Positions 7,300 to 46,229 of a DNA stretch of 64,000 bases are shown one piece after another; the stretch's first letter is position 1; each line of letters opens with the position of its first letter. Below the pieces are notes generated by a model. The model was not told the DNA's origin, searched no databases, and saw nothing but the letters and a program-made list of their open reading frames with translations. The translations under genes were made by a program, and so were the position numbers. The stretch spans positions 38,035-102,034 of the forward strand of contig CAUJNA010003775.1 of the NCBI GenBank assembly GCA_963377175.1, read 5' to 3'. Source of the DNA: Effrenium voratum (Eukaryota; Sar; Dinophyceae; Suessiales; Symbiodiniaceae).

Positions 7300-7690
7300 C
7301 ATAATTATATTTATGTGTATGCAATATGCATATATGTATACAGATATGGATGTGGCCTGCCTACATTGCGCCTTGTGAGCATCCAAGTTTAGTTCTTCCT
7401 ACCCTCCCGCGAACAAACACTGCGCACAGTCCCATTCCAAGCATGTCGCATACTTCCATGCTTGTTGATGGGGGGGCACTTCATTTTGCCAAACAATACA
7501 TGGAACACTTTTTAGTAAAATATACTTTTTGGTTTTTGCCAACCAATCACGGGACTTTTGGTGGAGCTTGGTTTGCGCCAAAGCAGTCCTTTCGCCTTTT
7601 CCCCACAAACCTTTCACTTTAAGTACCCATAAACGCCAAACCACCGGTCCATGTGGGACGTGACTTCTCTTTGGCTTCCAATTTCGCCCG
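5066..7690. other. Gene-poor stretch with TA microsatellites
   Basis: No gene is recognised. TA-rich microsatellites lie at about 5715-5800 and 7266-7350. The overlapping ORFs at 6771-7304 on both strands have no recognisable domain and run into the TA repeat. Confidence 0.5.
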
Positions 7691-7691
7691 G

Positions 7692-7771
7692 AAAATATAT
7701 ATATATATATTAAAAGCACACACACACACCACACACACACACCACACACACACACACGCACACACACACAC
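7692..7771. repeat. TA then CA microsatellite at the element's edge
   Basis: A (TA)n run (about 7695-7710) is followed by (CA)n with interruptions up to 7771. The CA run directly abuts the left end of the large element that starts at 7772. The short derivative at 36821 is likewise preceded by (CA)n (about 36803-36820), so the element seems to sit in CA microsatellites. Confidence 0.8.
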
Positions 7772-8117
7772 ACTTAAACTCCAAATGGAGAGTGCTAATC
7801 TTTCGAGTACAACTGATGAGTCTCGAGTACAACTGACAAGTCTCGAGTATGATGAGGTTCGACTCGCATAACGCTTGGCTTCCCTGTAGTTACTTTAACA
7901 GGGACACACAGAAGCAACGGCAGTTCAGGGGGGGACCAAAAGGACATTCAGAACAACACAACCATCTCGGCAGGTACGTCTGACTGATCAGGTCAGATAT
8001 CAGCGCAGGTCACGACCCTCTTCGTTGGGTCACCGGTCGTGACTGCGGGTGACCCCCCTGCTGAGAAACCGAAAGGGTGGTGACAGGGCATTCTGTCACT
8101 CCGCACACACACGCCCC
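7772..8117 (-). repeat. Element left end (3' terminal region)
   Basis: It starts ACTTAAACT right after (CA)n and ends at CCGCACACACACGCCCC, where similarity to the 36.8-kb and 37.8-kb copies stops. It contains two and a half copies of a 20-bp direct repeat (CGAGTACAACTGATGAGTCT and variants, 7800-7860). The other two copies share the start, the TTTCGAGT box and the CTCCGCACACACA end. It has no ORF, and is probably the 3' untranslated end of the minus-strand transcript. Confidence 0.75.
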
Positions 8118-8177
8118 TCAATGAGGGGCGAGAAGTCTCCTTTTCCGCAGGAAGATCACATGCTCAACCCCGTGTCC

Positions 8178-8690
8178 CTATCGTTGACCAAAAAATCCAC
8201 CGCGGCGAGGGGAACGAGAAACAGCCCTAAACCGCTCAGAAGACGGGAACGAGAGATCACCACGTTGAGCATTACGAGTGTCGCCATAGAGGACTGAAGC
8301 GAGTTGTGAAGCAGTCGAGCGATCACCATGAGAAAACGGAGTAGCATAGGTGAACGTCTCCTCAACTGGAATGGCATCGGAATTCCGAACTTCACCAAGA
8401 GATTGATCATGCGAATGATGAGTTGTGAAGGACTCCATTCGAGACAGAATGCGCTGGTATCCCTGATGCTGCCAGTCGCGGATGGTCCATGCCTGACCGT
8501 GCTCACCAGTGCGCCCATTGGGATCAGTCACCCGCTGCCATTCCCGAAAAGAATTGTCTGGTAGATCAGGTACAGTTTCTCCGTGGTGCCATTGCTGAGG
8601 CTGTCCTGCAGTGTAGATCCGCACCCACTCCTGATCCTGCCAGACCGAGTATTCGAGCCATGGGTGCTGCTTCGAATCCTCGATGTCCAT
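8178..8690 (-). CDS. Paralog 4 of the W-R-Y repeat protein family
   Basis: 170 aa from the ATG at 8690, which lies 42 nt downstream of a T-rich CAG acceptor (complement of 8732-8734). The open frame runs further upstream, but only through acceptor-like sequence. It has the family signatures EWVRIY (residues 21-26), FREWQRV (48-54), WTIRDW (68-73) and GYQRIL (77-82). An acidic/serine linker follows, then a C-terminus with SRSPRRG. It is the last of four tandem paralogs and the most diverged together with its upstream neighbour. The product is unknown; the domain is small (about 80 aa), rich in W and R, and may bind nucleic acid or protein (inference). Confidence 0.65.
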   Translation of the reverse strand: MDIEDSKQHPWLEYSVWQDQEWVRIYTAGQPQQWHHGETVPDLPDNSFREWQRVTDPNGRTGEHGQAWTIRDWQHQGYQRILSRMESFTTHHSHDQSLGEVRNSDAIPVEETFTYATPFSHGDRSTASQLASVLYGDTRNAQRGDLSFPSSERFRAVSRSPRRGGFFGQR

Positions 8691-8731
8691 GTCGAAGTAA
8701 GAGGCAAGGCGTATCGCGGGCTCCGATCCAG

Positions 8732-8760
8732 CTGATAGAGGAACAGGCACCATGCACAAC
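8732..8760 (-). promoter_or_regulatory. Probable splice/trans-splice acceptor
   Basis: A T-rich tract ending CTCTATCAG lies 42 nt before the start codon at 8690. Confidence 0.4.
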
Positions 8761-8840
8761 CATGTACAAGCAACAACCAAGCAAGGTAATGCAAGTGTGG
8801 AAACCACCCTTATTTTGTATGCTACCCCACTCGCGTGCGT

Positions 8841-9422
8841 CTAGTCCTCATTTAGCTCGAAGATAGGTCTCGCCTTGGCTTTGCAGCTGTCGGGAGGATT
8901 AACAGGCCGGTATGGGTCGGAGACCCCAACAGTCTCCGATGGTGTGATTCCACGTGATGCACGTACAGGTTGATGAAGTTGGGAAGCGTGACGTGCGCGA
9001 GCTGTCAGTTGTTGAGAAATCCCCTCTTGGAGACGAGTCAGTTCTTCGGTAGAGAAATCCGCCGCATCCGAGGATCTAAGGATCGCTTCTAACATCTGCG
9101 GTGACATACTCAATGCCGCGGATTGCGTGGCCACGCTGTGATGATCAGGAAAAGACATAGAATCAAAGTCATGACCAGCTTGAGGGGCAGCGACTCTCCG
9201 ATAGCCCTCTGTGGCCCAGTCTCTTTTGTACCACATGGTGACATTGAGCTGCTCACCGTCTTGGTCCGGGTTGGGAGCATAGAACTCCCTCCACTCTCTA
9301 TACGTGTGCGGTGGAGGTGGAGCATCATGTTCTTCATGTGGAGTCCATGATCCCGGATGAAAGATCTTGACCCACTGGGCATCTGGTTGTTGAGGATCCG
9401 GACACCATTCCAGCCACGGCAT
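8841..9422 (-). CDS. Paralog 3 of the W-R-Y repeat protein family
   Basis: 193 aa from the ATG at 9422, 40 nt after a CTGCAG acceptor (complement of 9461-9463). Family signatures: QWVKIF (16-21), PGSW (23-26), TYREWREF (40-47), KRDW (66-69) and EGYRRV (72-77). It lacks the DSTGG loop of paralogs 1 and 2. A charged C-terminal half (about 90-193) has a predicted helix rich in E, Q and R (STEELTRLQEGISQQLTARA) not seen in the other copies. Function unknown. It lies in a same-strand series with 100-170 nt spacers. Confidence 0.68.
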   Translation of the reverse strand: MPWLEWCPDPQQPDAQWVKIFHPGSWTPHEEHDAPPPPHTYREWREFYAPNPDQDGEQLNVTMWYKRDWATEGYRRVAAPQAGHDFDSMSFPDHHSVATQSAALSMSPQMLEAILRSSDAADFSTEELTRLQEGISQQLTARARHASQLHQPVRASRGITPSETVGVSDPYRPVNPPDSCKAKARPIFELNED

Positions 9423-9460
9423 GACAACGCAAACCCGGAAAGACAAATTGATAGGTACGG

Positions 9461-9490
9461 CTGCAGACAACAATTACTGAAAGAGACACA
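9461..9490 (-). promoter_or_regulatory. Probable splice/trans-splice acceptor
   Basis: TTTCAGTAATTGTTGTCTGCAG, a T-rich tract plus CAG, lies 40 nt upstream of the start codon at 9422. Confidence 0.4.
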
Positions 9491-9602
9491 ACTACCACAG
9501 TGCAAGAAATCACTTTTGCAGCAATGCACTGCTCCGGTATCGAAGTCAATCTCCCGAATCGAATTGAACTGAACAGACTCCCCAGGAAGGCGAGGACGAG
9601 CA

Positions 9603-10031
9603 TCAGCCACCATCCGAGTTGGAGGATGCCGATGAAGAGGTCAATCCAGCGTACATGAGGTCCGGTGCGCCCGAAGCGAAAACTGGCCGCGCAATGCTAG
9701 GGTGTGGGCGACCCAGCCGTTGGTATCCCCTGGTGACCCAGTCTCTATAATGCCAAGTATAGAAGGATGCATAAGATACCGGCTGCGAAACAGCACCTGT
9801 ATTGGTGCCGCCTGTGCTATCCCTCGGCCAATACACTTCGAAGTGGTAAACCTTGCGCCATTCCCGATAGGTGGTTGAGTCATCCGGGGCTGGTCCCAAG
9901 GTGTTCTCGGCGACTGGATGCCACGGACCCGGTACATAGATCCGAATCCATTCTACACTCGTATTCGCGGGGCCATTGACGATGTCGTAGTCAAAGTAGC
10001 GAGGCAGGACCCATCGTGCTGCGCTATACAT
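9603..10031 (-). CDS. Paralog 2 of the W-R-Y repeat protein family
   Basis: 142 aa from the ATG at 10031. Signatures: RYFDYDI (11-17), EWIRIY (27-32), PGPWHPV (34-40), TYREWR (54-59), VYWPRDSTGG (66-75), WHYRDW (93-98) and RGYQRL (101-106), then a Ser/Ala-rich tail ending SNSDGG. It is very similar to paralog 1, so the duplication is probably recent relative to paralogs 3 and 4. The conserved W, R and Y positions with low similarity between them point to a folded domain under selection. No family name can be given. Confidence 0.72.
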   Translation of the reverse strand: MYSAARWVLPRYFDYDIVNGPANTSVEWIRIYVPGPWHPVAENTLGPAPDDSTTYREWRKVYHFEVYWPRDSTGGTNTGAVSQPVSYASFYTWHYRDWVTRGYQRLGRPHPSIARPVFASGAPDLMYAGLTSSSASSNSDGG

Positions 10032-10191
10032 TGTACAATTGAACATATCAACCAGGCAAACCGCTCAGAGTCAAATGAAAGCGGCGAACAACTGGAGACG
10101 GAACGCACAACACCAAGCAAGACAACTCAACATGGAATCGCACACAAAGCAAGCACAACCGCGTCATTTTATCCGACATGTTGCTCAAGTA

Positions 10192-10614
10192 TCACTCCGA
10201 ATCGTTCCAAGGATCATAGAATGGTGGTGGTGACGGCTCTCGCCACGCCCCATCCGGAACCGATGAGTCCACCGAGGAATTGGCGTCTGCATTCACGAGC
10301 ATCGCGAGTCCAATGGCTGGTAAAGGAGCTCCAAGTCGTTGATACCCTCGTGTTTGCCAGTCTCGGTACTCCCACACGTGGTAGGACACATACGAACTGG
10401 GCGTGACAATGGGATCCGCTGTTGTTCCTCCGGTGCTGTCTTCGGACCAGTACACTTGGAAGCGATATGACCTGCGCCACTCCCGATACGTGGAAGCGTA
10501 GACCGGGGCGAGCACTGGAGCATCATCGGGAACGGGTCGCCACGTGCCCGGTGAGTAAATTCGAATCCATTCCACTCCTCTCTCGATCTGGTACTCGAAA
10601 TATTGAGGGTTCAT
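10192..10614 (-). CDS. Paralog 1 of the W-R-Y repeat protein family
   Basis: 140 aa from the ATG at 10614, 47 nt downstream of a TTCGCCGCAG acceptor (complement of 10661-10663). Signatures: YFEYQI (5-10), EWIRIY (15-20), PGTWRPV (22-28), TYREWR (42-47), VYWSEDSTGG (54-63), WEYRDW (81-86) and RGYQRL (89-94). The tail is Pro/Asp-rich. A longer upstream frame is open, but it reads through the acceptor tract and is unlikely to be translated. It is the first of the four tandem copies, and its role is unknown. Confidence 0.72.
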   Translation of the reverse strand: MNPQYFEYQIERGVEWIRIYSPGTWRPVPDDAPVLAPVYASTYREWRRSYRFQVYWSEDSTGGTTADPIVTPSSYVSYHVWEYRDWQTRGYQRLGAPLPAIGLAMLVNADANSSVDSSVPDGAWREPSPPPFYDPWNDSE

Positions 10615-10660
10615 AGCGGCAAGACAGGCTATCGCGCGGCCGCTAAAAGCAATCGAAAAT

Positions 10661-10700
10661 CTGCGGCGAAGACACACATGCAATGACAACCGCGCGCAGC
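10661..10700 (-). promoter_or_regulatory. Probable splice/trans-splice acceptor
   Basis: A T-rich tract with TTGCATGTGTGTCTTCGCCG precedes an AG 47 nt upstream of the start codon at 10614. Confidence 0.4.
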
Positions 10701-10797
10701 TGAAGTGTCAACCAAAGCAATGCAAGGCAACTTTTCAAACTCAAGGTGAGACACAGCAGCGAGGTTTGTAATATACGACTTATACGACGCCTAAGCT

Positions 10798-11367
10798 TCA
10801 CCGCCGTTGATGCCGCGCACACCTGCAATGATAATGTCCTGGTCGTCTACGAGCACAAGGGGAAAGACATTTCCGCCCATGGCGCAGGAAGGCATGACAG
10901 TAATGCTTGCAATTTGCCGATGGGGACAGCGATGGACGGTCAGCACGTTTGGAGGGGAACACGGTAAAGGGCCGCCGAGATCTCCGCGGTGCAGAAGCGG
11001 ATGCTGTCCGAGATCGTTTGGATGAACGCCCTGGACTGCGTAGCTCTTCATCACGGGAATTGTCAGTGCTGTAGATCGAGCGGCGTGTGCGCTGCGATTT
11101 CGATGTGGCAGGGCAGGATTGTCCGCGAGGAGCTGAGATCGAGGGGCTCCGTACTGAGGGCATAAACTGTGGGTGTAGAATCACCGGTGGTGGTGGCGGT
11201 GGAGGAGGCGGAGGTGGAAGAAGCAGTGGGAAACTTGGTGGGGGCGGAGGTGACGTAGTCTGCCGAATGGGTCTGTCAAGCAGGGCACCAGGTCCGTGAA
11301 ACTGTAACCACGTCGGCTGCGCTCCATGGGTCCAAGTAATGTACGTCTGTACGACTTGTTCCGACAT
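10798..11367 (-). CDS. Proline- and RS-rich protein
   Basis: 189 aa from the ATG at 11367. Residues 1-33 form a short folded-looking head (TYITWTHGAQPTWLQFHGPG). Then comes a polyproline stretch (about 40-62), then a basic Ser/Arg-rich half with RSSKRSRTAS and PRRSRRP, ending in a Cys/His/Arg-rich tail. A second minus-strand frame (10791-11054) overlaps the last 85 codons and reads more like an ordinary globular protein, with VLVDDQDIIIAGVRGING. The true C-terminus may therefore lie in that frame through a small intron or frameshift. The head, with two W residues, is weakly reminiscent of the W-R-Y paralogs next to it. Confidence 0.58.
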   Translation of the reverse strand: MSEQVVQTYITWTHGAQPTWLQFHGPGALLDRPIRQTTSPPPPPSFPLLLPPPPPPPPPPPVILHPQFMPSVRSPSISAPRGQSCPATSKSQRTRRSIYSTDNSRDEELRSPGRSSKRSRTASASAPRRSRRPFTVFPSKRADRPSLSPSANCKHYCHAFLRHGRKCLSPCARRRPGHYHCRCARHQRR

Positions 11368-11596
11368 GATTTGAGCAACTCAGTCATGCATTCAATTCAC
11401 GTCAGCGGCAACACCCACAACGGCAAGCAATATTACCCTGGTAAAATGCCAGTCAAGTGCAAGCAAGCAAATTTCATGTGATCAATAATGACTGCAATCC
11501 CAACCGTCGCAACAACCTGCAGCGCTAACCGAATACACCGCCACGGCCTACCATTTAGTCCTCCTGTGGTCGCTGTTGCATTTGATGACCGGGTTC

Positions 11597-12325
11597 CTAG
11601 CCGCGAGCCTCAAGTTGCTGATAGACCTTCCATGCCTGCTTGACTTCCTCAATGGGCTTCTGAAGGAACCGAGCAATGGTTTTGTAGGTGGGCCTGGAAT
11701 CCTTGTCTTTCTTCCGTCGCACCATCTCATCCAGCTCACCCTGTGTCCATGCCGTGAAAGGTTCACGGTGTGCATTGCGAAGTGCAATGGTGAATTCTTG
11801 TAGAAGTTCCCGAGGTCCATGAACCACCGTAGGAGACGGTCGGAACGACGAGGCACCTGGATGTGGACGCACTGAACCATCAGAATCCGAGTCAGGTGTC
11901 GTAGGCGTCATCTGTCCCGGTTCTCGTCCGCCGTGTGGGGCTAAGGGAGCAAGCGGCCGTGGTGGTGGCAGGTGATCCAACATCGATTCAGGCCGACGAC
12001 CAGAATTGTTGTCAGCGGCATCCCGATGTGCCGCACGAGGCGGGGATAAGGCCGGTATATACCAGGTGGATGAAGTGTCCAAAGGTCGGGTTCGAATTCG
12101 AGTGGGAGAGCGGGATCGGTCAGACGAAATGCGCTCTGTGATGATGCGAGGGCGCAGCCCATGTCTGGAGTTCCGTGGTGCCCTGGGAGACACTCTAGTG
12201 TCTGACGGATGGCTTCGCTCGGTCATCAGGGCAAAGTTCAGGGTGTCCAGAGCTGTCGCAACTTGGGATGCAAGGACATTGAGTACCGCCACCAGGTTAT
12301 TCACAAACTCGGCTGACAACTGCAT
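11597..12325 (-). CDS. RS-rich protein with SANT/Myb-like C-terminus
   Basis: 242 aa from the ATG at 12325. Residues 1-33 are a hydrophobic/heptad-like helix (FVNNLVAVLNVLASQVATAL). Residues 40-85 are Arg/Ser-rich (SDRSRSPTRIRTR), and 100-170 are Pro- and acid-rich. Residues about 190-237 read WTQGELDEMVRRKK then TYKTIARFLQKPIEEVKQAW, the spacing of tryptophans and helices expected of a SANT/Myb-type DNA-binding domain. An acceptor-like CATGCAG overlaps the start codon. With the GTGAGT donor at 12660 it could splice this exon in frame to the upstream ORF, so the two may be one gene. Confidence 0.66.
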   Translation of the reverse strand: MQLSAEFVNNLVAVLNVLASQVATALDTLNFALMTERSHPSDTRVSPRAPRNSRHGLRPRIITERISSDRSRSPTRIRTRPLDTSSTWYIPALSPPRAAHRDAADNNSGRRPESMLDHLPPPRPLAPLAPHGGREPGQMTPTTPDSDSDGSVRPHPGASSFRPSPTVVHGPRELLQEFTIALRNAHREPFTAWTQGELDEMVRRKKDKDSRPTYKTIARFLQKPIEEVKQAWKVYQQLEARG

Positions 12326-12444
12326 GGCAAATGAACACACAGCAAGGACAAATCAAGCAAGTAAGGCTGCGGAACTGCGAAGACATGATGCTTGCGAACA
12401 TGCATGCGCCGAAATACTGAGGTCCTTTTGCCGCTGGTGTTCCG

Positions 12445-12948
12445 TCAACGGTCATACGACAGACCTGATGGTCGACACGCCGGCATGGCCTTGACTGCCG
12501 GCGGGTACTTCGGATTGTAGGCATGGCGGCGGGACGTGGGAACCGCGTCGTCAGGTCGGCCAGGAAGCCGCCGGTGATGACTGCGAGATCGACGCCGATG
12601 AGGCTCCCGATGTCTGGACCTTCTCCTCCGTCTGTGCTCCCAGGAAGTACTGACACTCACCGTGCGGACGTGAGCAGGGTGCTCCGTACGGTTGTCTGAG
12701 GTGGCCACAAGAGTGACCGGTGCTGTCATGTAATCTGGCCGGACTGATGTTGCCGGCAAGGGCGGTGGCGTCGTAGATGGCGGGGGTAGCGGCGGTAGTT
12801 GGCCGTCAGGAACCGGTGGCGGTGGTGGCGGCTGTGGATGCCGCTGCTGGCCTTCAAGACGTTGCAGTCCGGCCAGAAGAAGACTGATTTGCGACGAGAT
12901 GGCAAGCAGCATGTGCCGACATTCACGTAAAAGGTCCCCATGATCCAT
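12445..12948 (-). CDS. Polyproline/RS-rich protein
   Basis: 167 aa from the ATG at 12948. It has an N-terminal amphipathic helix (about 4-32, with MLLAISSQISLLLAGLQRL), a polyproline stretch (39-64), then an Arg/Ser/His-rich block (about 104-130: RRRRRSRHREPHRRRSRS). The layout helix-proline-RS parallels the next ORF downstream, suggesting an old duplication. A consensus GTGAGT donor lies inside it (intron start at 12660, phase 0). Removing 12320-12660 would fuse residues 1-96 in frame with the SANT-like ORF and drop the RS block. Both readings are possible; RS blocks in sister ORFs favour the unspliced one. Confidence 0.6.
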   Translation of the reverse strand: MDHGDLLRECRHMLLAISSQISLLLAGLQRLEGQQRHPQPPPPPPVPDGQLPPLPPPSTTPPPLPATSVRPDYMTAPVTLVATSDNRTEHPAHVRTVSVSTSWEHRRRRRSRHREPHRRRSRSHHRRLPGRPDDAVPTSRRHAYNPKYPPAVKAMPACRPSGLSYDR

Positions 12949-13183
12949 CACAATGCAGGTGAAGATGCGACAGAGAGGGCCAAGTCAATCAGTAATCTAC
13001 TCAAAATGCGGCGACGGCAAGCAACACAACAAGCATGCAACACACTTCATCAAGACATGAGCCTCAGGCAACCCCATACGCTTTTTCCGGAAGAGGAGCG
13101 TCATGATGTACACCATGAAAGTCAGGGCACAAACCACGGTGGGCCTGTGCAAAAGGGTTGTCAGACTGCATTGCCATAGTCGT

Positions 13184-14557
13184 TCACCAGAACATGCCCA
13201 TGTAGCTGGGCACCGCAATCGATGATCGGAGTTTCCACCTGCCATCTTTGGCGTGAATGCAGTCATAGTAATGGGAAGCAGCTATGTCAGCGTACACTCC
13301 GCCACGGGGTATGGTGCAATGCTGTTGCCGGAGTCGTGCAGTTCCACCAATGCACACGGGGCGATCCGTGTGAATTCCCGCGAACTGCGCTGCTGATTGG
13401 ACTGCCGCTTCCTGAGATTGAAGGCTGCCCCTGCAGTAAAATCCCATCGGAGGCAACCAGACTTCGTTCCAGTTTGAGCACTCGCGGTTGGGGGAAGGAT
13501 GCTCTTGCCATTTTGAGGGTCTGATCAGCTCTTCATCACGCAGGATGTTCATGGCCGCCTGCATATTGGTATTGTGGGACCAGAAAAACGTCGACTGTGA
13601 CTGAGTGCGATGCTTGTCCGGCAGCAATCGGCGCGGCTCAAACGAGAAGATGATCCCGAAGAGGTTCTTCTGGGAGTTCTTTTTGTCCGTCGAGAAGTGG
13701 TGATACGTCCGTGCAGTCCTGCGGATATATGGCCATTTTTCTTCGCAAATGCCAAGCTGTACGATGAGTTGCTGCGGCAGTGACTTCGGGGAGATCTGGA
13801 AGTAGTCAGACATGTCTCTGACCACTTGATCCGTCCAACGTCCCGGGACGCCATGTGGTGGCGGAGAAAACGGAAACTCCGAAATGGACTTGACCCGCTG
13901 CTCATCTTCGATGATGCTGCGGCGATGCGGCATGAGGCTCCTGTAGACCGTCTCCCACGATTTCTTCCACTGCTCAGGTTCAGGAAATACTAAGGCGGCA
14001 ATCGAGGGCAAGGTGTAGTAAAGGACATCGTTCACTACGATGGCAATTTCCTCGACCCGGCAACCAGTGCGCAGCTTGAAGCGATGACTGCCAAAATCGG
14101 GTACATGCTGTCGAACTGAGAGAGGAAGCAGCACAATGCGGTTCTCGGATGGACTGACTTGAGCGGGAGGCAACGGAGGCGAGCGGGGCCTCCTTTGATC
14201 ACCATGAGCACGCCTCCCATCACTTTTCCATTCACCCCAGTCCTCCTCCTCATCTGACTTTCCCTGTGGGCCTGGGGTGAGCTTGATCCGGGAATGGCGG
14301 GACTTGGGTGAGCGCGAACGTGACCTTCCGGTGTGATTGCGTACCGCTCGGATTTTGGCCTCGGATCCAAGTGCCGGAGCGTCACGGGATGGGCCGTGGG
14401 ATTGTACACTTTGCTGGTGTGCTAGTCCGTGTGTCCGGATGAACATTTGCATCTCATTGCCGTTGATAAAGTTGGGAAGGTGCTCCAGCGTCACGCGGCT
14501 CGTAGTTTGCACTGATCCGTCTGAACGTAAGAGACTGGTGACCGTGTACTCCGCCAT
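13184..14557 (-). CDS. Large RS-containing protein with possible ART-like C-terminus
   Basis: 457 aa from the ATG at 14557 (context ACCATGG), 14 nt after a CTGCATGCAG acceptor. Residues 77-100 are RS-rich (RSRSRSPKSRHSR), 101-140 acidic/Pro-rich, and 141 onward globular. Residues 325-350 (SHNTNMQAAMNILRDEELI) resemble the H-x-T/S plus IL..G.. helix start of ADP-ribosyltransferase/PARP folds. MGFYCRGS (371-378) fits the place of their G-x-Y strand, and YADIAASHYYDC follows (422-433). A catalytic glutamate cannot be assigned with confidence. If real, it would modify protein or nucleic acid using NAD+. This is a remote-similarity guess; an unknown fold is equally possible. Confidence 0.68.
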   Translation of the reverse strand: MAEYTVTSLLRSDGSVQTTSRVTLEHLPNFINGNEMQMFIRTHGLAHQQSVQSHGPSRDAPALGSEAKIRAVRNHTGRSRSRSPKSRHSRIKLTPGPQGKSDEEEDWGEWKSDGRRAHGDQRRPRSPPLPPAQVSPSENRIVLLPLSVRQHVPDFGSHRFKLRTGCRVEEIAIVVNDVLYYTLPSIAALVFPEPEQWKKSWETVYRSLMPHRRSIIEDEQRVKSISEFPFSPPPHGVPGRWTDQVVRDMSDYFQISPKSLPQQLIVQLGICEEKWPYIRRTARTYHHFSTDKKNSQKNLFGIIFSFEPRRLLPDKHRTQSQSTFFWSHNTNMQAAMNILRDEELIRPSKWQEHPSPNRECSNWNEVWLPPMGFYCRGSLQSQEAAVQSAAQFAGIHTDRPVCIGGTARLRQQHCTIPRGGVYADIAASHYYDCIHAKDGRWKLRSSIAVPSYMGMFW

Positions 14558-14570
14558 GGTTCTGAGCCAG

Positions 14571-14600
14571 CTGCATGCAGACACAACGCAATACATCAAC
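14571..14600 (-). promoter_or_regulatory. Probable splice/trans-splice acceptor
   Basis: TTGCGTTGTGTCTGCATGCAG lies 14 nt before the start codon at 14557. A GTGAGC donor-like site near 14647 could pair with it as an intron of about 75 nt. Confidence 0.45.
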
Positions 14601-15045
14601 AACAATCACAAGCGTGCGCAAGAAGAGACAACATGACAAGCTCACATGCAGATTTTGTCCCGAGTCGACGCCGAACGTCACGGAGAAGGTGGGGGTCGAA
14701 ACCTTTGGCCTCATAAAGGCGCTTGAGAGCGTTAAGTCCTTGCTGTTGCTGAACCGCAGGTTGTGCACCACGTATGATGAGCCAGGAGCGAGAAGACCAA
14801 GAAGAATAAGTAAACATCTGATCATTGGCACTCCGAATTCCTTTGATTTGGGAGGGATGATCAGGTAGCTGTGGTGTAATAGTTCTGGAAGAAGAATCAC
14901 ATCGATAGCCCAGCACTTTGTCATCATGTTGAACCTCAAGCATCACTGGTGGGCGATAAAATTCCAGGGAAAGAAAATTCATTGGTCGGCTTTGGAAGGA
15001 TGCGAGCTGTGGGCAACGGTGCTTGAAGTCGAAGTCCCCATGCAT
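14596..15045 (-). pseudogene. Fragment resembling the C-terminal tail of a reverse transcriptase
   Basis: 149 codons overlapping the end of the upstream ORF in another frame. From about residue 30 it reads as protein: FYRPPVMLEVQ, then QIKGIRSAN, then SWLIIRGAQPAV and LNALKRLYEAKGFDPHLL. The last piece has the L..L...Y...GF/Y....L pattern typical of the thumb-side end of retroelement RTs. Upstream, the other frame ends just after an RT-like first motif (ILPKPTNEF). The YxDD palm, which should lie between, is missing, so I read this as what remains after an internal deletion plus frameshift. A separate small gene is the alternative. Confidence 0.42.
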
Positions 15046-16350
15046 ATCGCTGACGTAGGAGGGAAGGTACCGTAGTCACCACTTCAGAGCGAAAAGATGC
15101 TGCGGATTCACGGCATAGCGAAAAGACATCTCCCGAGCAAAAGGTCTTCCGCATCAGTATGGCAAACAGGGACGGACAAATCACATGTGCGCGGGAGGGG
15201 AAATGATCCGCGGGGATTACAACCCACGATGACAGAGAAGCCACGGTGCGCTGCAACGATGTCGATGACCAATAAGCACGATCTTGAAGGTTAGCTCGAT
15301 GAGTGTCCATCAACTGAGTCAAAACCGGCTGCAGATCAACAAGAAGACTGGAACCATGCACATGCCAGCGACGAGCAAGTTTGCGAAGTTGCGTAGTGAA
15401 ACGTTGATGTAACAAGTCGACATCACCGAAATACTGATCCTTCATTGACGCGGCCATGATTTCCATGTCAATGTCCGCATTGATGCGTGAGAACTCATCA
15501 ACCATTACAGCATGTCCATGTGCTCGGTGTATATGGTGATCATCGATGTCCAAACAGCGACACGGAAAAGATGTTTCAGGAGTCCATCTGCGCTGCCATG
15601 TGCGGTAGTTGTAGATCTTGTCGCCCAACGTGGCACTGCGAGTTTCCACCACCCGGATCTTTGGAAGGAAAAGGGAGGGAAACAAATCACGATGAGAAGT
15701 AATCCAGCTTTGTAACCATGTGCCAAGTAGAGCTTTCCAATTCCGGACATGTAGAGGCGGTAGGAGTAGTTGTGTCAAAGTGGTGGGTGATTGTAGCTGT
15801 CGTTTGCGTAACACCTGGGCGAGGAGTTTCTGCGCCTTGGAGCGGAAGGGCTCGTTGACAAAGACGGAGAGCCGCAGAAAGTAGTAAAGCTGAGTAGGAG
15901 GGAAAGCTGCCGACAGAAGGTCACGCATGGCTTGGAACGATGCACCTGTATTGGATCCCAGCTGATAGAGAATAGAGTAATGGGCCTGAATGTCATCCAG
16001 CATGTCGGGACGTAGTTGCCGTTGAAGATCCGGATGTAGTCGTCGTCGAAAGCGTTTGTGCAAGCCGAGGGAAGTGGGAGACGACAACGAGTGACGTCGA
16101 AAATCAACGAGGTGTTCCCGGAAGCCCACCTTTCGCAGAAGTCTGTGTACCCAGGGTGCATTCAAATGCGGGCGTAGCAGGTATTGCCATTTGCTTTCCT
16201 GGACCCAAACCGAGGAAACGGGAAGTTTGATCTCAACCGGAACAGCACAGAAGAGCCAGTAAGTATTGGATCGCTTCCAGTAGTGAAGCGCGGGTTCGAA
16301 GAAGGCATGACGTCCCGAAGTAGTTGTAGAAATTTGCGACTGCGTGAGTG
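14936..16350 (-). CDS. Linker and start of RT domain; continues the GIY-YIG gene in another frame
   Basis: The frame is open from about 16350. The 409-codon part after 16165 begins at a TTG, so there is no own start. The first 60 codons carry FFEPALHYWKR, VPVEIKLPV and QESKWQYLLRPHLNAPWV. The last has the E...L...P.LN pattern expected at the end of a GIY-YIG nuclease domain whose first half lies in the frame of the preceding ORF. Further on come a helical linker, a PCRCLDIDDHHIHRAHGH segment (CxC plus histidines, possible zinc binding), and near the end ARILPKPTNEF, resembling the first RT motif, before a TGA at 14936. One original gene broken by a frameshift is the best reading; programmed frameshifting or a sequencing indel cannot be excluded. 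Confidence 0.6.
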
Positions 16351-16980
16351 TTCACGTCGTAGAACATCCTGATCAGTCGCACCAACGTAGTAAGGTGTGT
16401 GCCATGGGGAAAGTCGGATGTAGACGCACGGTTGTTGATGATGACCTGGATCGTGAATGAAGTCATAGAGGTCCGGAAATCGTGCTCGCAATGAGCGAAG
16501 ATGTCGCGTGTCGGCAAAAGTGGAGTGCATAATTTCACACAAGAGAGAAGCCTTGTAGAAGTGAAGGACTTCAAAGAACGGCGGAAAGTAGCCATGATCT
16601 TGGGAAATGAGACGTTGTAAGAAACTGATCAATAAATAGGCAGTGCACCGACATCTATGACATCTATGAATCTCATACCTGTTGGCCACAGTGTGTTGAG
16701 AGTGTGACATAGCGTGATTCGGAATCTGAAGGGCAATCCGGACCACAACTAAGACTTCCAGAATGAGGCCCAACCACGGTAGTTGTGTGATTGATTCGTA
16801 CTCACCAGCTGGTATCGACGGTGGTGGTAGTCCAGGGAAGCAGTATTGCCAGCACGTAGAGAACATGGTCAACGAGTGTAAAAAGTTGCCCAGAGACTGC
16901 CATTGTGCAACATCATCATAGATTCCACAGCGGCGAAGCTCATCCAACATGGTGAAAATGCAACCAATGAAATCTACCAT
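16162..16980 (-). CDS. GIY-YIG nuclease domain protein, N-terminal half, with probable intron
   Basis: 272 codons from the ATG at 16980, 23 nt after a TCTGTGCAG acceptor (complement of 17003-17005). The GIY-YIG core is visible as CVYIRL (185-190), YYVGAT (197-202) and RREHSRSRKFL (208-218), i.e. the strand pair plus the R...H helix. GIY-YIG enzymes cut DNA with a tyrosine/arginine/glutamate site. The last part of this frame (SSNPRFTTG onward) looks non-coding, while the next frame continues the domain, so the gene is frameshifted between about 16290 and 16350. A consensus GTGAGT donor (16805) and T-rich CCCAAG acceptor (16599) would remove 207 nt and join IPA to DHGYFPPFF in frame. Confidence 0.66.
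   Translation of the reverse strand: MVDFIGCIFTMLDELRRCGIYDDVAQWQSLGNFLHSLTMFSTCWQYCFPGLPPPSIPAGEYESITQLPWLGLILEVLVVVRIALQIPNHAMSHSQHTVANRYEIHRCHRCRCTAYLLISFLQRLISQDHGYFPPFFEVLHFYKASLLCEIMHSTFADTRHLRSLRARFPDLYDFIHDPGHHQQPCVYIRLSPWHTPYYVGATDQDVLRREHSRSRKFLQLLRDVMPSSNPRFTTGSDPILTGSSVLFRLRSNFPFPRFGSRKANGNTCYARI
16599..16805 (-). other. Probable intron in the GIY-YIG gene
   Basis: It starts CTG/GTGAGTACG and ends TTTCTTACAACGTCTCATTT then CCCAAG. It is 207 nt, phase 1, and splicing preserves the frame. It contains no in-frame stop, so the ORF runs through it, but the encoded piece (a CHRCRC cluster) looks less protein-like than its flanks. Confidence 0.5.
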
Positions 16981-17002
16981 AAGGCGGCGACATGGATACA
17001 AG

Positions 17003-17040
17003 CTGCACAGACAATCACGCACAAGGCAATGCAAGCACAA
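17003..17040 (-). promoter_or_regulatory. Probable splice/trans-splice acceptor
   Basis: A TTGCATTGCCTTGTGCGTG tract followed by ATTGTCTGTGCAG lies 23 nt upstream of the start codon at 16980. Confidence 0.45.
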
Positions 17041-17162
17041 CCAAGCACAAGATCAAACTGATGCAACGCAAAAAGATGACGGACGAGTTTTAACCTTGAC
17101 TCATCCGTGACACGGTTGCCGCTCCGGGCTCATAAGAGAACGAAGGTCGTTAAGATGCCTGC

Positions 17163-18203
17163 TCATCCGCTGAGTAAGCGAGCGGTCACGATGAGGTGAC
17201 TCAATGCCTTCTCAGTGAGCTTGGTGAGATAGCCGGGCTCCAGTCCCCACGAAGCCGCCATCGCCCCGAGAGTAGGTGCGTCGCCTTTCGGCATGCGTTG
17301 ACGCGCTTGAAGGAGCTGCGTCGCCATGGAATCTAATGACTTGTTGCCGTTGAGCCGGGACGGGTGATTGGCCCACTTGACCAGTGACGTCAAAGTTGTG
17401 GTTGTGGGCGATTGCTTGAGATAAAGGCGTGGCTGGTCACTGGTCCATGTGTAGTACTTGACAACTTCTTCCGGCGTGCTGTGCATGGTGAGCACTTGTG
17501 ACGCCGCCGGCTTGGACGGCGGTGAAGACACTCCGTGAAGAGACTGAATGATCCGGGGTTGCACCGCGCTATCAAACGACTTGCCATCAAGGGCCGCTGC
17601 GCTGGCGGTAGGGAGGGAGCTGGCAGGTGACGAGGATTGTGTGTGGTTGACCGGTGGCGGTGTAACCAACTCTGCATCATCTTTCTGGCTTGCCATCGTG
17701 GGAGAGGTCGAAGCGCGCAGCGATGCTGAATACTGAGCCTGGAGCAGCTCATGCGCACGATTTGGATCATTGTACTTCTTGACCATGTCATCTGTCTGGG
17801 TGGAAGGTGTGAGAGAAGCGTGGTGTTGCTGAAGAAATTGAAGTACCAAGCTGGCCAAATGGTCATGAACCTTGATCCGCTGATTGAAGTCATCGATGTT
17901 GAGACCCAGCGAGTTGGCAAGGTCCTTTTCCAGGGTGAGCAGGTTGATCGACTGTGATCGTCGTAGTAGTTTGGAACAGGTACTCCAAAGTAAGGCCTCT
18001 GTGCGAGTGCGAAAGCCTTCCCATGTCACGAATCTGCCGTGAGCGAACGGTCGGAGCAGCCAGTTGGTGAGGCCCCCATGAATAACCTGAACCAGGCGAA
18101 CGTCACGAATATCCATGCCTGACATGTCGCGCAGGTTGCCATGCGGAGTGTTGGCAACGTTCATGGGCAGGCTGAAGTTGTAGAGCTGATTGACATCAAA
18201 CAT
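17163..18203 (-). CDS. Large ORF downstream of an in-frame TAG; gag-position protein of unknown fold
   Basis: 346 aa from the ATG at 18203. The eight codons before it (PDWTPGEG) are also open back to a TAG, and the ORF upstream of that TAG is in the same frame, so this is probably the second part of one longer protein. N-terminal third: globular (VIHGGLTNWLLRPFAHGRF, then helices with LLTLEKDLANSLGLNIDDF). Middle: Ser/Pro-rich linker (about 160-215). C-terminus: short helical domain (LTSLVKWANHPSRL, LGAMAASWGLEPGYLTKL). Its position ahead of the nuclease/RT gene is that of a gag-like protein in retroelements, but no gag motif or zinc knuckle is seen. Confidence 0.68.
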   Translation of the reverse strand: MFDVNQLYNFSLPMNVANTPHGNLRDMSGMDIRDVRLVQVIHGGLTNWLLRPFAHGRFVTWEGFRTRTEALLWSTCSKLLRRSQSINLLTLEKDLANSLGLNIDDFNQRIKVHDHLASLVLQFLQQHHASLTPSTQTDDMVKKYNDPNRAHELLQAQYSASLRASTSPTMASQKDDAELVTPPPVNHTQSSSPASSLPTASAAALDGKSFDSAVQPRIIQSLHGVSSPPSKPAASQVLTMHSTPEEVVKYYTWTSDQPRLYLKQSPTTTTLTSLVKWANHPSRLNGNKSLDSMATQLLQARQRMPKGDAPTLGAMAASWGLEPGYLTKLTEKALSHLIVTARLLSG

Positions 18204-18227
18204 GCCCTCTCCAGGTGTCCAGTCAGG

Positions 18228-18629
18228 CTATGGTGTAAGCCAGGCTTTCTGAGGACGAACCGGTAGAGCCGCAGGAGGTCCAGGTGGCGGTGTAGGTTGC
18301 GGGGTAGTGACCGGTGGTGGCATCACGGGTGGCATGAACTTCGTTGGCGTGGGGTCTGGAGGGATCGGCATCATGTAGTTGATTGCTGGATGTTGGAATT
18401 GCTGTGTGGGACTATGAGTCGATTGAAAATTGGTGGGCATCATCGGGAAATTGTTGGCAGAGTTGTAGCCGGAATTGTGTTGCCAAGATACCAGGTTGTT
18501 CCAATCCATGCCTTCCGAGACGTGGTGGTCATTGTGTTCACGTCGGTGTGCTTTACGCGCCTGAGGAGAAGTACTCCGATCACGTCTGCGCCGAGTCCTG
18601 GATCTATCACGATCTTCACGTCGAGACAT
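18228..18629 (-). CDS. RS/proline-rich N-terminal ORF ending at TAG
   Basis: 133 aa from the ATG at 18629 (ACCATGT). Residues 1-32 are Arg/Ser/Asp-rich (RREDRDRSRTRRRRDRS). Then comes an Asn/Gln/Met/Pro-rich disordered stretch and a polyproline end (about 97-126). It ends QKAWLTP-TAG, and the next codons in the same frame read PDWTPGEG into the 346-aa ORF. Alternatively the TAG is removed as the last bases of an intron (CACCATAG), is read through, or is a mutation. It is the first ORF of the element's transcript. Confidence 0.62.
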   Translation of the reverse strand: MSRREDRDRSRTRRRRDRSTSPQARKAHRREHNDHHVSEGMDWNNLVSWQHNSGYNSANNFPMMPTNFQSTHSPTQQFQHPAINYMMPIPPDPTPTKFMPPVMPPPVTTPQPTPPPGPPAALPVRPQKAWLTP

Positions 18630-18775
18630 GGTTACACAATCGACTCTCAATCTTCACGCTTCCATCTTGAGAGACACGTATCAGACAACAAGCAAATCCA
18701 TGCAACGGCAAGGTATCAACGAATCCAACAAATGGCAAGCAAACATCGATGGTGAGACGTCTCTATGATCTGACC

Positions 18776-18900
18776 GCTGTCTTCCCTTTAGTGAGACCTC
18801 GTTCCTGGTTAAATGTGAAATTCCGCTGTTCTATGATAAGCACGTTGAGGTCAATTTTTCCGACAGAGCCGGCCCGGGGTCACACAATGGGTACACCCGA
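18776..18900 (-). repeat. Element right end (5' terminal region)
   Basis: It matches 37677-37800 at roughly 90% identity with one 1-bp indel, from GCTGTCTTCCCTTTAGTG to GGGTACACCCGA. The match stops only because of the assembly gap. In the short copy a further 25 bp with a CCCCACGAATGGGG hairpin complete the end. As the 5' end of the minus-strand transcript it may contain the promoter. Confidence 0.8.
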
Positions 18901-19000
18901 NNNNNNNNNNNNNNNNNNNNNNNNNNNNNNNNNNNNNNNNNNNNNNNNNNNNNNNNNNNNNNNNNNNNNNNNNNNNNNNNNNNNNNNNNNNNNNNNNNNN
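18901..19000. other. Assembly gap (100 N)
   Basis: One hundred undetermined bases hide the element's right terminus and its junction with the satellite beyond. The round length suggests a gap of unknown true size. Confidence 1.
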
Positions 19001-19750
19001 CACAACACAACACAAAACAACACAACGCAACACCACACAACACACCACACAACACACCACAACACAACACAACACAACACAACACAACAACACAACACAA
19101 CGCAACACACCACACCACACAACACACCACAACACACCACAACACAACACAACACAAAACAACACAACGCAACACCACACAACACACCACACAACACACC
19201 ACAACACAACACAACACAACACAACACAACAACACAACACAACGCAACACACCACAACACAACACAACACAAAACAACACAACGCAACACCACACAACAC
19301 ACCACACAACACAACACAACACACCACAACACAACACAACACAAAACAACACAACGCAACACCACACAACACACCACACAACACACCACAACACACCACA
19401 ACACAACACAACACAAAACAACACAACGCAACACCACACAACACACCACACAACACACCACAACACAACACAACGCAACACAACAACACAACACAACGCA
19501 ACACACCACACCACACAACACACCACAACACACCACAACACAACACAACACAAAACAACACAACGCAACACCACACAACACACCACACAACACACCACAC
19601 AACACACCACAACACAACACAACACAAAACAACACAACGCAACACCACACAACACACCACACAACACACCACAACACAACACAACACAACACAACACAAC
19701 AACACAACACAACGCAACACAACACAACAACACAACACAACGCAACACAC
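19001..19750. repeat. CACAA/CACACC satellite
   Basis: A 750-bp array of CACAA, CACACCA and CGCAA words, with higher-order repeats of about 60-120 bp (for example CAAAACAACACAACGCAACA recurring). Long open frames (H/N/T-rich on plus, C/V-rich on minus) arise only from the repeat. Confidence 0.95.
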
Positions 19751-36450: not shown

Positions 36451-36820
36451 GCTAGAGCAAATGTACTTGCTTGGACCCTTTTCCTTTGTTTCTTGTGGTC
36501 AATAGGGGAGATAAGGCAGCCTGCAAACGTGCAAATGTAAGGTATTCGTGGTGACTTTTCCCGAAATCCAAGAAGGGTCCCTGTTTTTGCCTTGTTCAAG
36601 TCTACCATAAACAGGAGCAAAGCAACATTTGCTCTCTAAGTTACCCAACAGCTGCCCGAAGTTTGTCAATGGCACAACACACAAATCAACAATATCATAA
36701 TGGCGATCCGCCAAGTCCACTCTGCCACCTTTGTCCAAGTCAGCTATGCACTTCGCGCAAGTGCCAGTGAAGTGATGCCACGGATATTGAACAGTTGAAC
36801 GTGCACACACACACACACAC

Positions 36821-37825
36821 ACTTAGACTCAGATGGAGGGCTCTAATCTTTCGAGTGCAACTGGCAAGTCTCGGCTTGGATAAGGTTCTGCATGAATAAG
36901 TTTCGGCTCGCAAAGCACTCGGTTTCCCTCTAGAGGCGAAAACGTTACAGAATCAACATGAAGCACACACAGTGGCAAAGAAGAGGGCCAAAAAGACTTT
37001 CAGAATCACTCAAATGGTGCAGGTACACAAGGCAGATCAGGCCTTGCTTCCCACTCTCACCCGCAGCTTCATTGCGTGTGGTAGGATGAGAGTGCCCACG
37101 CCCCTGCATGTTGAAAAGTTGGCATCAGGGTAAATCTGATGCTCCGCACACACACGCCCCCACTGTCAGACGACTTTGAAACGGACCTATGCCAGGCGTG
37201 GCTCAGCCTGCCAGACGACCTTGAAACGGACCTATTCGAGGGGGTGGCTCCGCCTGCCAGACGACTTCGAAACTATACCAGGGGTGGCTCTGCCTGCCAG
37301 ACCAGACCTACGCAAGGGGTGGTTCAGCCTGCCAGACGACCTTGAAACGGACCTATTCGAGGGGATGGCTCTGCCTGCCAGACGACATCGAAACGGACCT
37401 ATGCCAGGGGTGGCTCTGCCTGCCAGACGACCTTGAAACGGACCTACGCAAGGGGTGGCTCAGCCTGCCAGACGACCTTGACAAGACGATCCGCCACATC
37501 ATGGAACAAGCATTGCGCAAACAGAACATGCACGCGCAACCCGAGCATTGCACAACCAGAACATCAAGTTCAACGGCATTGATGCAATCAGCAAGCAGCT
37601 CCCATCACAACGCAAGGCACAAAGGAATCTGCCAGCAGCGACATCCAGGATTGTGAAACTTAACTATGAAGAGGTGGCTGTCTTCCCTTTAGTGAAACCT
37701 CGTTCCTGCTTAAACGTGAAATTCCGCTGTTCTATGATAAGCACGTTGAGGTCAAATTTTCCGGCGTACCGGCCCGGGGTCACACGATGGGTACACCCGA
37801 GGGTCCCCACGAATGGGGTGTTCAC
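36821..37825 (-). mobile_element. Short, ORF-less derivative of the 7.8-18.9 kb element
   Basis: Left end 36821-37155 and right end 37677-37825 match the ends of the large element. The about 10.5-kb coding interior is replaced by a 45-bp tandem array and about 190 bp of spacer-like sequence with TTGC/GCAA words. The right terminus is complete here: GGGTACACCCGAGGGTCCCC, then ACGAATGGGGTGTTCACAC, with a CCCC/GGGG hairpin. It is flanked by (CA)n on the left and followed directly by another left end at 37826. A non-autonomous, MITE-like or deletion copy mobilised by a full element is the simplest explanation. Confidence 0.8.
37160..37490. repeat. 45-bp tandem repeat array
   Basis: About seven and a half units with CAGACGACCTTGAAACGGAC, then CTATTCGAGGGG or CTACGCAAGGGG, then TGGCTCTGCCTGC. 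Units vary from 35 to 46 bp and stay open in one plus frame (a 15-residue repeat LPDDLETDL...). This is probably an accident of a unit length divisible by three. Confidence 0.9.
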
Positions 37826-38165
37826 ACTTAGACTTCAGATGGAGGGTTCTAATCTTTCGAGTACAACTGGTAAGTCTCGGCTTGGATAAGGTTCTGCATG
37901 AATAAGTTTCGGCTTGCAAAGCACTCGGTTTCCCTCTAGAGGCGAAAACGTTACAGAATCAACATGAAGCACACACAGCGGCAAAGAAGAGGGCCAAAAT
38001 GACTTTCAGAATCACTCAAAAGGTGCAGGTACACAAGGCAGATCAGGCCTTGCTTCCCACTCTCACCCACAGCTTCATTGCGTGTGGTAGGATGAGAGTG
38101 CCACACGCCCCTGCATGTTGAAAAGTTGGCATCAGGGTAAATCTGATGCTCCGCACACACACACA
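37826..38165 (-). repeat. Extra tandem copy of the element's left end
   Basis: Nearly identical to 36821-37155 and placed head-to-tail right after the short element's right end; it stops in a (CA)n run (38152-38175). Such partial tandem copies are typical of Penelope-like elements (pseudo-LTRs) and could also arise from unequal crossover. Confidence 0.85.
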
Positions 38166-38527
38166 CACACATGCACACATGCACGCCTCTGGAGTGCATG
38201 ACTGCGCATTCCCAAAATGGTTGTCAAGTTCGTGTGGCTTACAGAGAATCTGCAAGTCAATGACAGCTCTTCCATGCACTCAGTGCTGCCAGGGAACGCC
38301 GTGGCGCGTCATGCAGGCAGAATGCCACTCACATCCACGGGCGGAACGTCACGGTGGACCGCTCTATCGTATGGCTGTGCACGTGTCAGACTTGGGAGGG
38401 GTTCCCTGAGGGTTTTTTGCAGGCATTTGCCTTTCTGGCATCACGCCCAAGTTTCTTCTGCGTGTCTGTCTTTGTGCAGTACGTGCTCGTCAAATTTGAC
38501 TGACGTGCTGGTTGGTTGCCGCGGCAG

Positions 38528-45790: not shown

Positions 45791-46229
45791 CTGGGGGCCC
45801 TAAATGGAATGGGTGCGGATTTATTTTGGGATTTTTTTTCGTTTTTTTTTTTGGGATTTTTTTTTCGTTTTTCGTCCGGGCCAGCAAAATGTCGTATTTT
45901 ACAGCATTTTCTCGCGAAATTGACGCATTTTACACTAGCTCGTCAACATCCCCAGCATCATTTTCAACATCCCCCGCATGTCCGACCAACATCCCTAGCA
46001 TCACCAACAAATCGTGGGTAACAAAATCCAAAAATGTAGCTGGCGGGTTGACGGGGTCAAAACAATGATGCTTCAAACAGGAGGGCATTTCAATCCCAGC
46101 AAAAAAAATACAAAAAAACAATTAAGAAAAACAGAGCGGGGTAGTGATGATTCGAACAGGGGTGCAATTAAATCTCTGCAAAAAGTCTAAAAAGTAGCGG
46201 GGGGGTTGGGGGGGGCGGCAGCCCCCCCC

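What the first reader, a model, noticed from the sequence alone, without database searches (positions are those of the whole stretch)
7772..18900. About 11-kb multi-ORF element joining a GIY-YIG/RT remnant to a dozen undescribed RS-rich and W-R-Y ORFs
Both ends recur in a short derivative 18 kb away, so the segment is a unit. It contains a mobility-type gene (GIY-YIG before the RT start) plus ORFs that I cannot match to any retroelement protein. Established knowledge: permuted Penelope-like elements (Chlamys/Naiad) have GIY-YIG at the N-terminus and can sit at CA repeats, but are not known to me to carry so many extra genes. Inference: either a giant Penelope-derived element or a virus-like/composite element.
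Basis: partly seen in the sequence, partly recalled or inferred. Interest (0 to 1): 0.9.

Follow-up and report, generated by a model that had tools for sequence, protein, structure and literature searches.

The report
Giant Penelope retroelement with ten genes
The segment is a damaged copy of a 12.2-kilobase repeat, present many times in this genome, that joins a reverse-transcriptase gene of likely Penelope type to nine other genes, eight of which show natural selection keeping their proteins; it likely spreads by copying itself through RNA into TG repeats, and matters because Penelope elements with this kind of enzyme are described as 4-6 kilobases long with one gene.

Summary
Window 7768-18900 is one copy of a repeat family whose full length is 12.06-12.18 kb (nine pairs of end repeats); an assembly gap cuts its 5' end. 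The full unit: 5' pseudo-LTR, ORF1 (488 aa), a 1019-aa GIY-YIG + reverse-transcriptase ORF, eight further ORFs (E, P13, S12, P11, A, B, C, D), 3' pseudo-LTR, in mostly TG-rich flanks. In 63 of 90 ORF E copies ORF C lies downstream on the same strand, 58 at 3.2-3.9 kb; none upstream or on the other strand. The eight extra ORFs show dN/dS mostly 0.06-0.45. The window copy is dead (RT-core deletion, endonuclease frameshift, stop in ORF1). A related 8-kb family in the same genome has the same enzyme type and pseudo-LTRs, but none of the eight ORFs was detected in the copy read. Functions of the eight ORFs are unknown. T-rich tracts before all ten ORFs, with a conserved YAG before A, C, D and E, point to trans-splicing of one transcript (inferred).

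The parts
7717..7773 (.). CA/TG microsatellite, target site at the element's 3' side
   Evidence: tandem repeat; CA-type junction seen also in L001
7768..8112 (-). 3' pseudo-LTR, 345 bp
   Evidence: 99.7% to the 5' pLTR of copy C691; 40 full-length hits scored
8178..8690 (-). ORF D (W-R-Y family), 170 aa; an earlier ATG at 8753 is possible
   Evidence: dN/dS
8841..9422 (-). ORF C (W-R-Y family), 193 aa
   Evidence: 150 copies scored; dN/dS; AlphaFold model of low mean confidence with an all-beta core at pLDDT about 70-88
9603..10046 (-). ORF B (W-R-Y family), 147 aa
10192..10614 (-). ORF A (W-R-Y family), 140 aa
10798..11367 (-). ORF P11, 189 aa, proline- and RS-rich
   Evidence: dN/dS 0.08-0.19 in 6 of 6 copies, one a partial alignment
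11597..12325 (-). ORF S12, 242 aa, RS-rich
   Evidence: dN/dS 0.12-0.27 in 6 of 6 copies, four of them partial alignments, one of these with a stop
12445..12948 (-). ORF P13, 167 aa, proline- and RS-rich
   Evidence: pN/pS 0.309; dN/dS 0.06-0.30 in 6 of 6, one partial
13184..14557 (-). ORF E, 457 aa, RS-rich
   Evidence: 90 copies scored, 4 of 90 with an inside stop; pN/pS 0.208
14596..16980 (-). EN-RT gene, broken here: 683-bp deletion of the RT core (junction with 4-bp overlap at 14979-14982) and a frameshift in the endonuclease half
   Evidence: comparison with L038 and with proteins P0016, P0185
16162..16980 (-). GIY-YIG endonuclease half of the EN-RT gene
   Evidence: motifs VYI / YYVGAT / RREH in this frame, E and P.LN in the next frame; all in one frame in C691
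17163..18629 (-). ORF1, SR-rich then proline-rich, interrupted here by one in-frame stop; open (488 aa) in C691
18654..18900 (-). 5' leader; the 5' pseudo-LTR would lie beyond, in the N gap 18901-19000
36818..38170 (-). short non-autonomous derivative: pLTR, 45-bp minisatellite, 5' leader, pLTR

Best explanation
This is a damaged copy of a 12.2-kb repeated element, found with paired 345-bp end repeats at nine other places, that joins a gene with GIY-YIG endonuclease motifs and a reverse transcriptase to ORF1 and eight accessory genes under purifying selection, and that likely copies itself through RNA into TG/CA repeats. Shown: the unit, its ends, gene order, multiple near-identical copies, mostly TG-rich flanks, selection on the eight accessory ORFs (ORF1 and EN-RT were not tested), and a shorter sister family in which they were not detected. 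Inferred: (1) one RNA starts in the 5' pseudo-LTR and runs through all genes; (2) spliced-leader trans-splicing at the T-rich tracts before each ORF would give separate messages; (3) the SR-rich ORF1 protein would coat the RNA; (4) the EN-RT would nick TG/CA repeats, and the exposed CACAC end would pair with the GUGUG at the RNA's 3' end to prime reverse transcription; (5) the RS-rich proteins E, P13, S12 and P11 are predicted to act in the nucleus on RNA processing or RNP assembly, and the four W-R-Y proteins as small beta-sheet subunits of that particle. Step 5 is the weakest.
For: Full-length pairs: 9 of 12 neighbouring pLTR pairs span 12,056-12,182 bp, from 40 full pLTR hits on 28 contigs. 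Pair identity 99.1-100% in five of the six two-ended copies (the sixth, C3005, 92%, beside a gap) and 99.7% in C691. Synteny: 63 of 90 E copies have C downstream on the same strand, 0 upstream, 0 opposite; 30 of 30 fetched E loci have the RT gene's 3' part directly upstream. RT identity: family member P0185 matches Pfam RVT_1 at E 0.0032, relatives P0271 and P0272 (31% and 26% identical) at 7.2e-5 and 0.0024, all below Pfam's cut-off; the C691 EN-RT frame matches a PHROGs reverse-transcriptase family at 0.0081. Selection. Trans-splicing: mean T 0.374 in the 100 nt before 10 starts against 0.246 background, 0 of 200,000 random draws as high; YAG kept before A, C, D in relatives and TGCAG before E in 29 loci. 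Sister family.
Against: Pfam gives no GIY-YIG match in any protein of the family tested and mostly no RT match (the weak exception is P0185). No hammerhead ribozyme, a known PLE feature, was found by Rfam or by pattern in the left pLTR or the derivative. 27 of 90 E copies had no C in the capped lists. No transcript data. RT motif C reads YVDN, not the usual YxDD (recalled norm), so activity is not assured.
Confidence: 0.82

Rival explanations
1. An LTR-type or virus-like element: true LTRs and integrase-type insertion, with accessory ORFs being structural or envelope-like genes, and the GIY-YIG motifs incidental.
For: Two near-identical terminal repeats bounding one internal region, and many ORFs.
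Against: No integrase, protease, RNase H, capsid or envelope recognised by Pfam or PHROGs in the ten ORFs (weak, since the RT is barely recognised too); GIY-YIG motifs in line with the RT; preference for TG-rich sites.
Confidence: 0.08
2. A composite: a small Penelope element of the 8-kb type picked up a block of host genes (E to D), which merely hitch-hike.
For: The copy read of the related 8-kb family lacks the block, so a gain (or loss) happened; RS-rich proteins resemble host splicing proteins in composition.
Confidence: 0.1
3. The ORFs are one spliced or frameshifted polyprotein rather than separate messages.
For: Several predicted proteins run from RT into E (P0005, P0008, P0037, P0038, P0041, P0166); these may be gene-model joins.
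Against: In the 29 of 30 fetched E loci where the start motif was found, an in-frame stop lies 16 codons before it; the RT-E linker differs in frame among relatives (P0163 and P0165 leave the E frame); each ORF has its own ATG and T-rich upstream tract.
Confidence: 0.1

Closest known systems
Permuted Penelope-like elements (Chlamys/Naiad clade; Craig et al. 2021, not held, known to me from its title in the reference list of PMC11167929 and from recall)
   Different: 12.2 kb with ORF1 and eight further conserved ORFs; no hammerhead ribozyme found.
Terminons (Athena PLEs of bdelloid rotifers; passages of PMC6431247 and PMC5408684)
   Same: A Penelope-type RT inside a giant element with many accessory ORFs.
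   Different: Terminons are endonuclease-deficient, attach to telomeres, reach 40 kb and carry DEDDy, GDSL and Rep genes; here the endonuclease motifs are in line with the RT, sites are mostly TG/CA repeats and the accessory ORFs are of unrecognised types.
Canonical Penelope/Poseidon elements (passages of PMC11167929)
   Same: RT + GIY-YIG, pseudo-LTRs.
   Different: Endonuclease is C-terminal there, single ORF; PLEs are described as typically 4-6 kb (passage of PMC6431247).
P0271 family in the same genome (this work; copy C3246:364759-372733)
   Same: Homologous EN-RT (31% identity), an ORF1-like protein (tblastn 2e-6), 289-bp pLTRs 99% identical, TG-repeat flanks.
   Different: 7,975 bp; none of E, P13, S12, P11, A-D detected at E 1e-4.

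Membership tests
Penelope-like elements | Telomerase-like (PLE-type) reverse transcriptase | tested here: inconclusive
   RT motifs in order in C691 (ARPIIS, DLSGFF, GVAMGSP, RYVDN, KVLGY); Pfam RVT_1 below cut-off for P0185, P0271 and P0272. It is an RT; that it is of PLE type was not tested by a tree with reference PLEs.
Penelope-like elements | GIY-YIG endonuclease | tested here: inconclusive
   Motif level positive: VYI..YYVGAT..RREH..E..P.LN in C691, same pattern in the P0271 family; motif definition recalled. Pfam gives no hit and no fold was predicted.
Penelope-like elements | Pseudo-LTRs at both ends | tested here: met
Penelope-like elements | Hammerhead ribozyme in the pLTR | tested here: inconclusive
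   No Rfam match in window 7600-19000 or in L038, L039, L072; no consensus pattern in the left pLTR or derivative. Not every PLE need carry one.
Permuted PLEs (Chlamys/Naiad) | GIY-YIG N-terminal to RT in one ORF | tested here: met
   If the motifs are accepted: C691 has GIY-YIG motifs at residues 207-295 and RT motifs at 693-941 of one 1043-codon open frame
Permuted PLEs (Chlamys/Naiad) | Insertion at CA/TG repeats (recalled for some members) | tested here: met
   TG-step fraction of the 60-nt flank 0.41-1.00 on the 5 readable of 6 5' sides (the sixth is N) and 0.24-1.00 on 7 3' sides (C423 3' lowest); window background mean 0.19; also C691, L001 and the window copy.
Terminons | Endonuclease-deficient RT | tested here: not met
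   EN motifs are in line with the RT
Terminons | Attachment to telomeric repeats | not tested
   Flanks read were mostly TG-rich; the telomeric repeat of this genome was not determined.
LTR retrotransposon / retrovirus | Integrase, RNase H, protease | tested here: inconclusive
   No Pfam match in the ten ORFs, but Pfam barely recognises even the RT here.

The most novel reading that the evidence does not exclude
A retroelement operon: an endonuclease-bearing Penelope lineage that has grown into a ten-gene, virus-sized replicon, whose single transcript is cut by the host's spliced-leader trans-splicing into ten messages, with eight dedicated accessory proteins (four of one new beta-sheet family) forming an RNA-processing and delivery particle.
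Probability: 0.4. Interest if true: 0.87.

Novelty: new variant of a known kind. Interest (0 to 1): 0.75.

Why it matters
It would show that a retroelement with an in-line endonuclease of the Penelope type can carry and keep eight extra genes, which was known to me only for the telomeric, endonuclease-free Terminons. With a sister family in the same genome in which the block was not found, the gain or loss of the genes can be dated and the question 'what do accessory genes do for a retroelement' becomes testable. If each ORF is trans-spliced, it also explains how an element without internal promoters could express ten genes.
Full report
1. What was claimed and what is there. Self-comparison of the window confirms it: 7755-7889 matches 36804-36933 (74%) and 18748-18900 matches 37649-37800 (87%); the derivative is bounded by 346/348-bp direct repeats, 36818-37163 and 37823-38170, 96% identical, set in CA repeats. 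The right edge of the segment is an N gap (18901-19000), so the segment is cut, not complete.

2. The unit. In the window's own genome (1.156 Gb, 3699 contigs) the 345-bp end repeat gave 40 full-length scored hits on 28 contigs (1390 first-look candidates, so a lower bound). Of 12 neighbouring same-strand pairs, nine span 12,056-12,182 bp; the others are 2,288, 21,157 and 30,539 bp. Copy C691:1050118-1062299 was read in two stretches: 5' pLTR, ORF1 (488 aa), EN-RT (1019 aa from the first ATG), then E, P13, S12, P11, A, B, C, D, 3' pLTR; the pLTRs are 99.7% identical. Its S12 frame ends differently from the window's. Nine further copies were sampled at the predicted ends: six showed both pLTRs (pair identity 92.1, 99.1, 100, 100, 99.2, 100%), one (C3580) only the 3' one because its 5' side is N, and two (C3652, C999) ran into N gaps. 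Flanks are TG-rich on most sides read; the C423 3' flank is the weakest (0.24).

3. The genes travel together. ORF E had 90 scored copies (1214 candidates), 4 of 90 with an inside stop. ORF C had 150 scored copies (2026 candidates). 63 of 90 E copies have C downstream on the same strand within 15 kb; 58 of these at 3.2-3.9 kb (window: 3714), two near 4.5 kb and three at 10.4-11.0 kb; none lies upstream or on the opposite strand. The 27 unpaired copies may be truncated, in gaps or outside the capped lists. All 30 fetched E loci have the 3' part of the RT gene directly upstream. A second long copy, C3138 (L001/L002), keeps window 7745-12294 (99.6%) joined to 17306-18368 (99.2%): it has lost P13, E, the EN-RT gene and the adjoining ends of S12 and ORF1, and runs into a gap.

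4. The proteins are kept by selection. Among indel-free copies of the 30 fetched E loci, pN/pS is 0.208 for E (29 copies, one with a stop) and 0.309 for P13 (24 copies). Against more distant copies, dN/dS is 0.06-0.30 for P13 (6 of 6), 0.12-0.27 for S12 (6 of 6, of which four are partial alignments, one of these with a stop) and 0.08-0.19 for P11 (6 of 6). For A-D, eight loci were compared with the window: all have B, C and D in order (B is split in L065) and seven have A (split in L059). dN/dS was obtained for A in 7, B in 7, C in 8 and D in 8 of the 8 loci; in the 15 comparisons with dS of 0.2 or more it is 0.12-0.42. Three values of 0.62-1.06 come from pairs with dS of 0.034 or less. Stops were seen in B of L058 and D of L059. 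These comparisons all use the window copy and are not independent. ORF1 and EN-RT were not tested for selection.

5. Enzyme. Predicted proteins from public assemblies hold pieces of the gene in line: P0185, GIY-YIG motifs with RT motifs; P0016, GIY-YIG with the middle part; P0166, RT with E. In C691 the GIY-YIG motifs (VYI, YYVGAT, RREH, E, P.LN; pattern recalled) lie at residues 207-295 and RT motifs at 693-941 of one open frame. Pfam's RVT_1 is reached weakly by P0185 (E 0.0032), P0271 (7.2e-5) and P0272 (0.0024), all under the curated cut-off, and by none of the other family proteins tried; PHROGs gives a reverse transcriptase at 0.0081 for C691. No search gave a GIY-YIG match. Motif C reads YVDN in the aligned members of both families. 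The window copy is dead: 683 bp of RT core are missing with a 4-bp overlap at the junction, the endonuclease half is frameshifted and ORF1 has a stop; C691 is open in these genes. That deletion was seen in none of the other 29 fetched loci, though L018 and L032 have other gaps and L023 matches only the last 750 bp of the gene.

6. W-R-Y proteins. A, B, C and D are paralogues (31-51% identity to A). A profile search found 212 proteins (120 listed); of the 161 proteins then held, 48 are closest to D, 46 to C, 20 to A, 6 to B, 39 to E and 2 to the EN-RT. The AlphaFold model of C has a beta core at fair confidence and no confident match.

7. Expression. The 100 nt before the ten ORF starts average 37.4% T against 24.6% in the element; none of 200,000 draws of ten positions, nor of ten ATGs from 223, reached this. 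YAG sites before A, C and D persist in relatives, but none is evident before B; TGCAG precedes E in the 29 loci listed. This fits spliced-leader trans-splicing, called pervasive in dinoflagellates (passage of PMC5029490), though reviews call polycistronic transcription rare or limited there (passages). The organism was not identified by me, and the spliced-leader sequence is not in the window.

8. Sister family. P0271 (31% identical RT) has 54 matches (1864 candidates). Copy C3246:364759-372733 is 7,975 bp with 289-bp pLTRs 99% identical, TG flanks, open frames of 639 and 519 codons (the second ORF1-like, tblastn 2e-6) and EN-RT; no match to E, P13, S12, P11 or A-D at E 1e-4. One copy was read in full. 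So the eight-gene block was, on this evidence, gained by one family or lost by the other.

9. Mechanism. Both pLTRs end in GTGTG and are bordered by short TG runs on their inner sides too. I infer that EN-RT nicks TG/CA repeats and that the CACAC 3' end primes on the RNA's GUGUG end. This is untested.

10. Verdict. A giant, endonuclease-bearing, permuted-Penelope-type retroelement with ten genes: a new variant of a known kind. Literature: PLEs with endonuclease are described as 4-6 kb with one ORF, and giant PLEs (Terminons) as endonuclease-deficient (passages of PMC6431247). None of eight searches listed such an element, in a library that lacks the key 2021 paper.

Noticed in passing
P0041, P0037, P0038, P0005, P0271, P0272; L038:3379-6507: The RT catalytic motif C reads YVDN, not YxDD (recalled norm), in both element families, although copies look young (near-identical pLTRs). 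The second acidic residue may be dispensable here.
   Followed up: partly
L072, L073 (C3246:364759-372733): A second abundant Penelope-type family (about 8 kb, three ORFs, 54 matches) with its own pLTRs in TG repeats.
   Followed up: partly
window 37163-37481: A 45-bp minisatellite makes up much of the interior of the short derivative.
   Followed up: no
window 45966-47688: Diverged head-to-tail duplication (86%) containing 104-105-bp tandem repeats.
   Followed up: no
window 19001-19765: A 5-bp (CACAA)n array of 765 bp lies just beyond the gap, a GT-rich flank on the element's 5' side if the gap is short.
   Followed up: no
C118:111759-144736: Two element copies lie close together on one strand (three pLTRs, two E genes), perhaps one inserted at the end of the other.
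   Followed up: no
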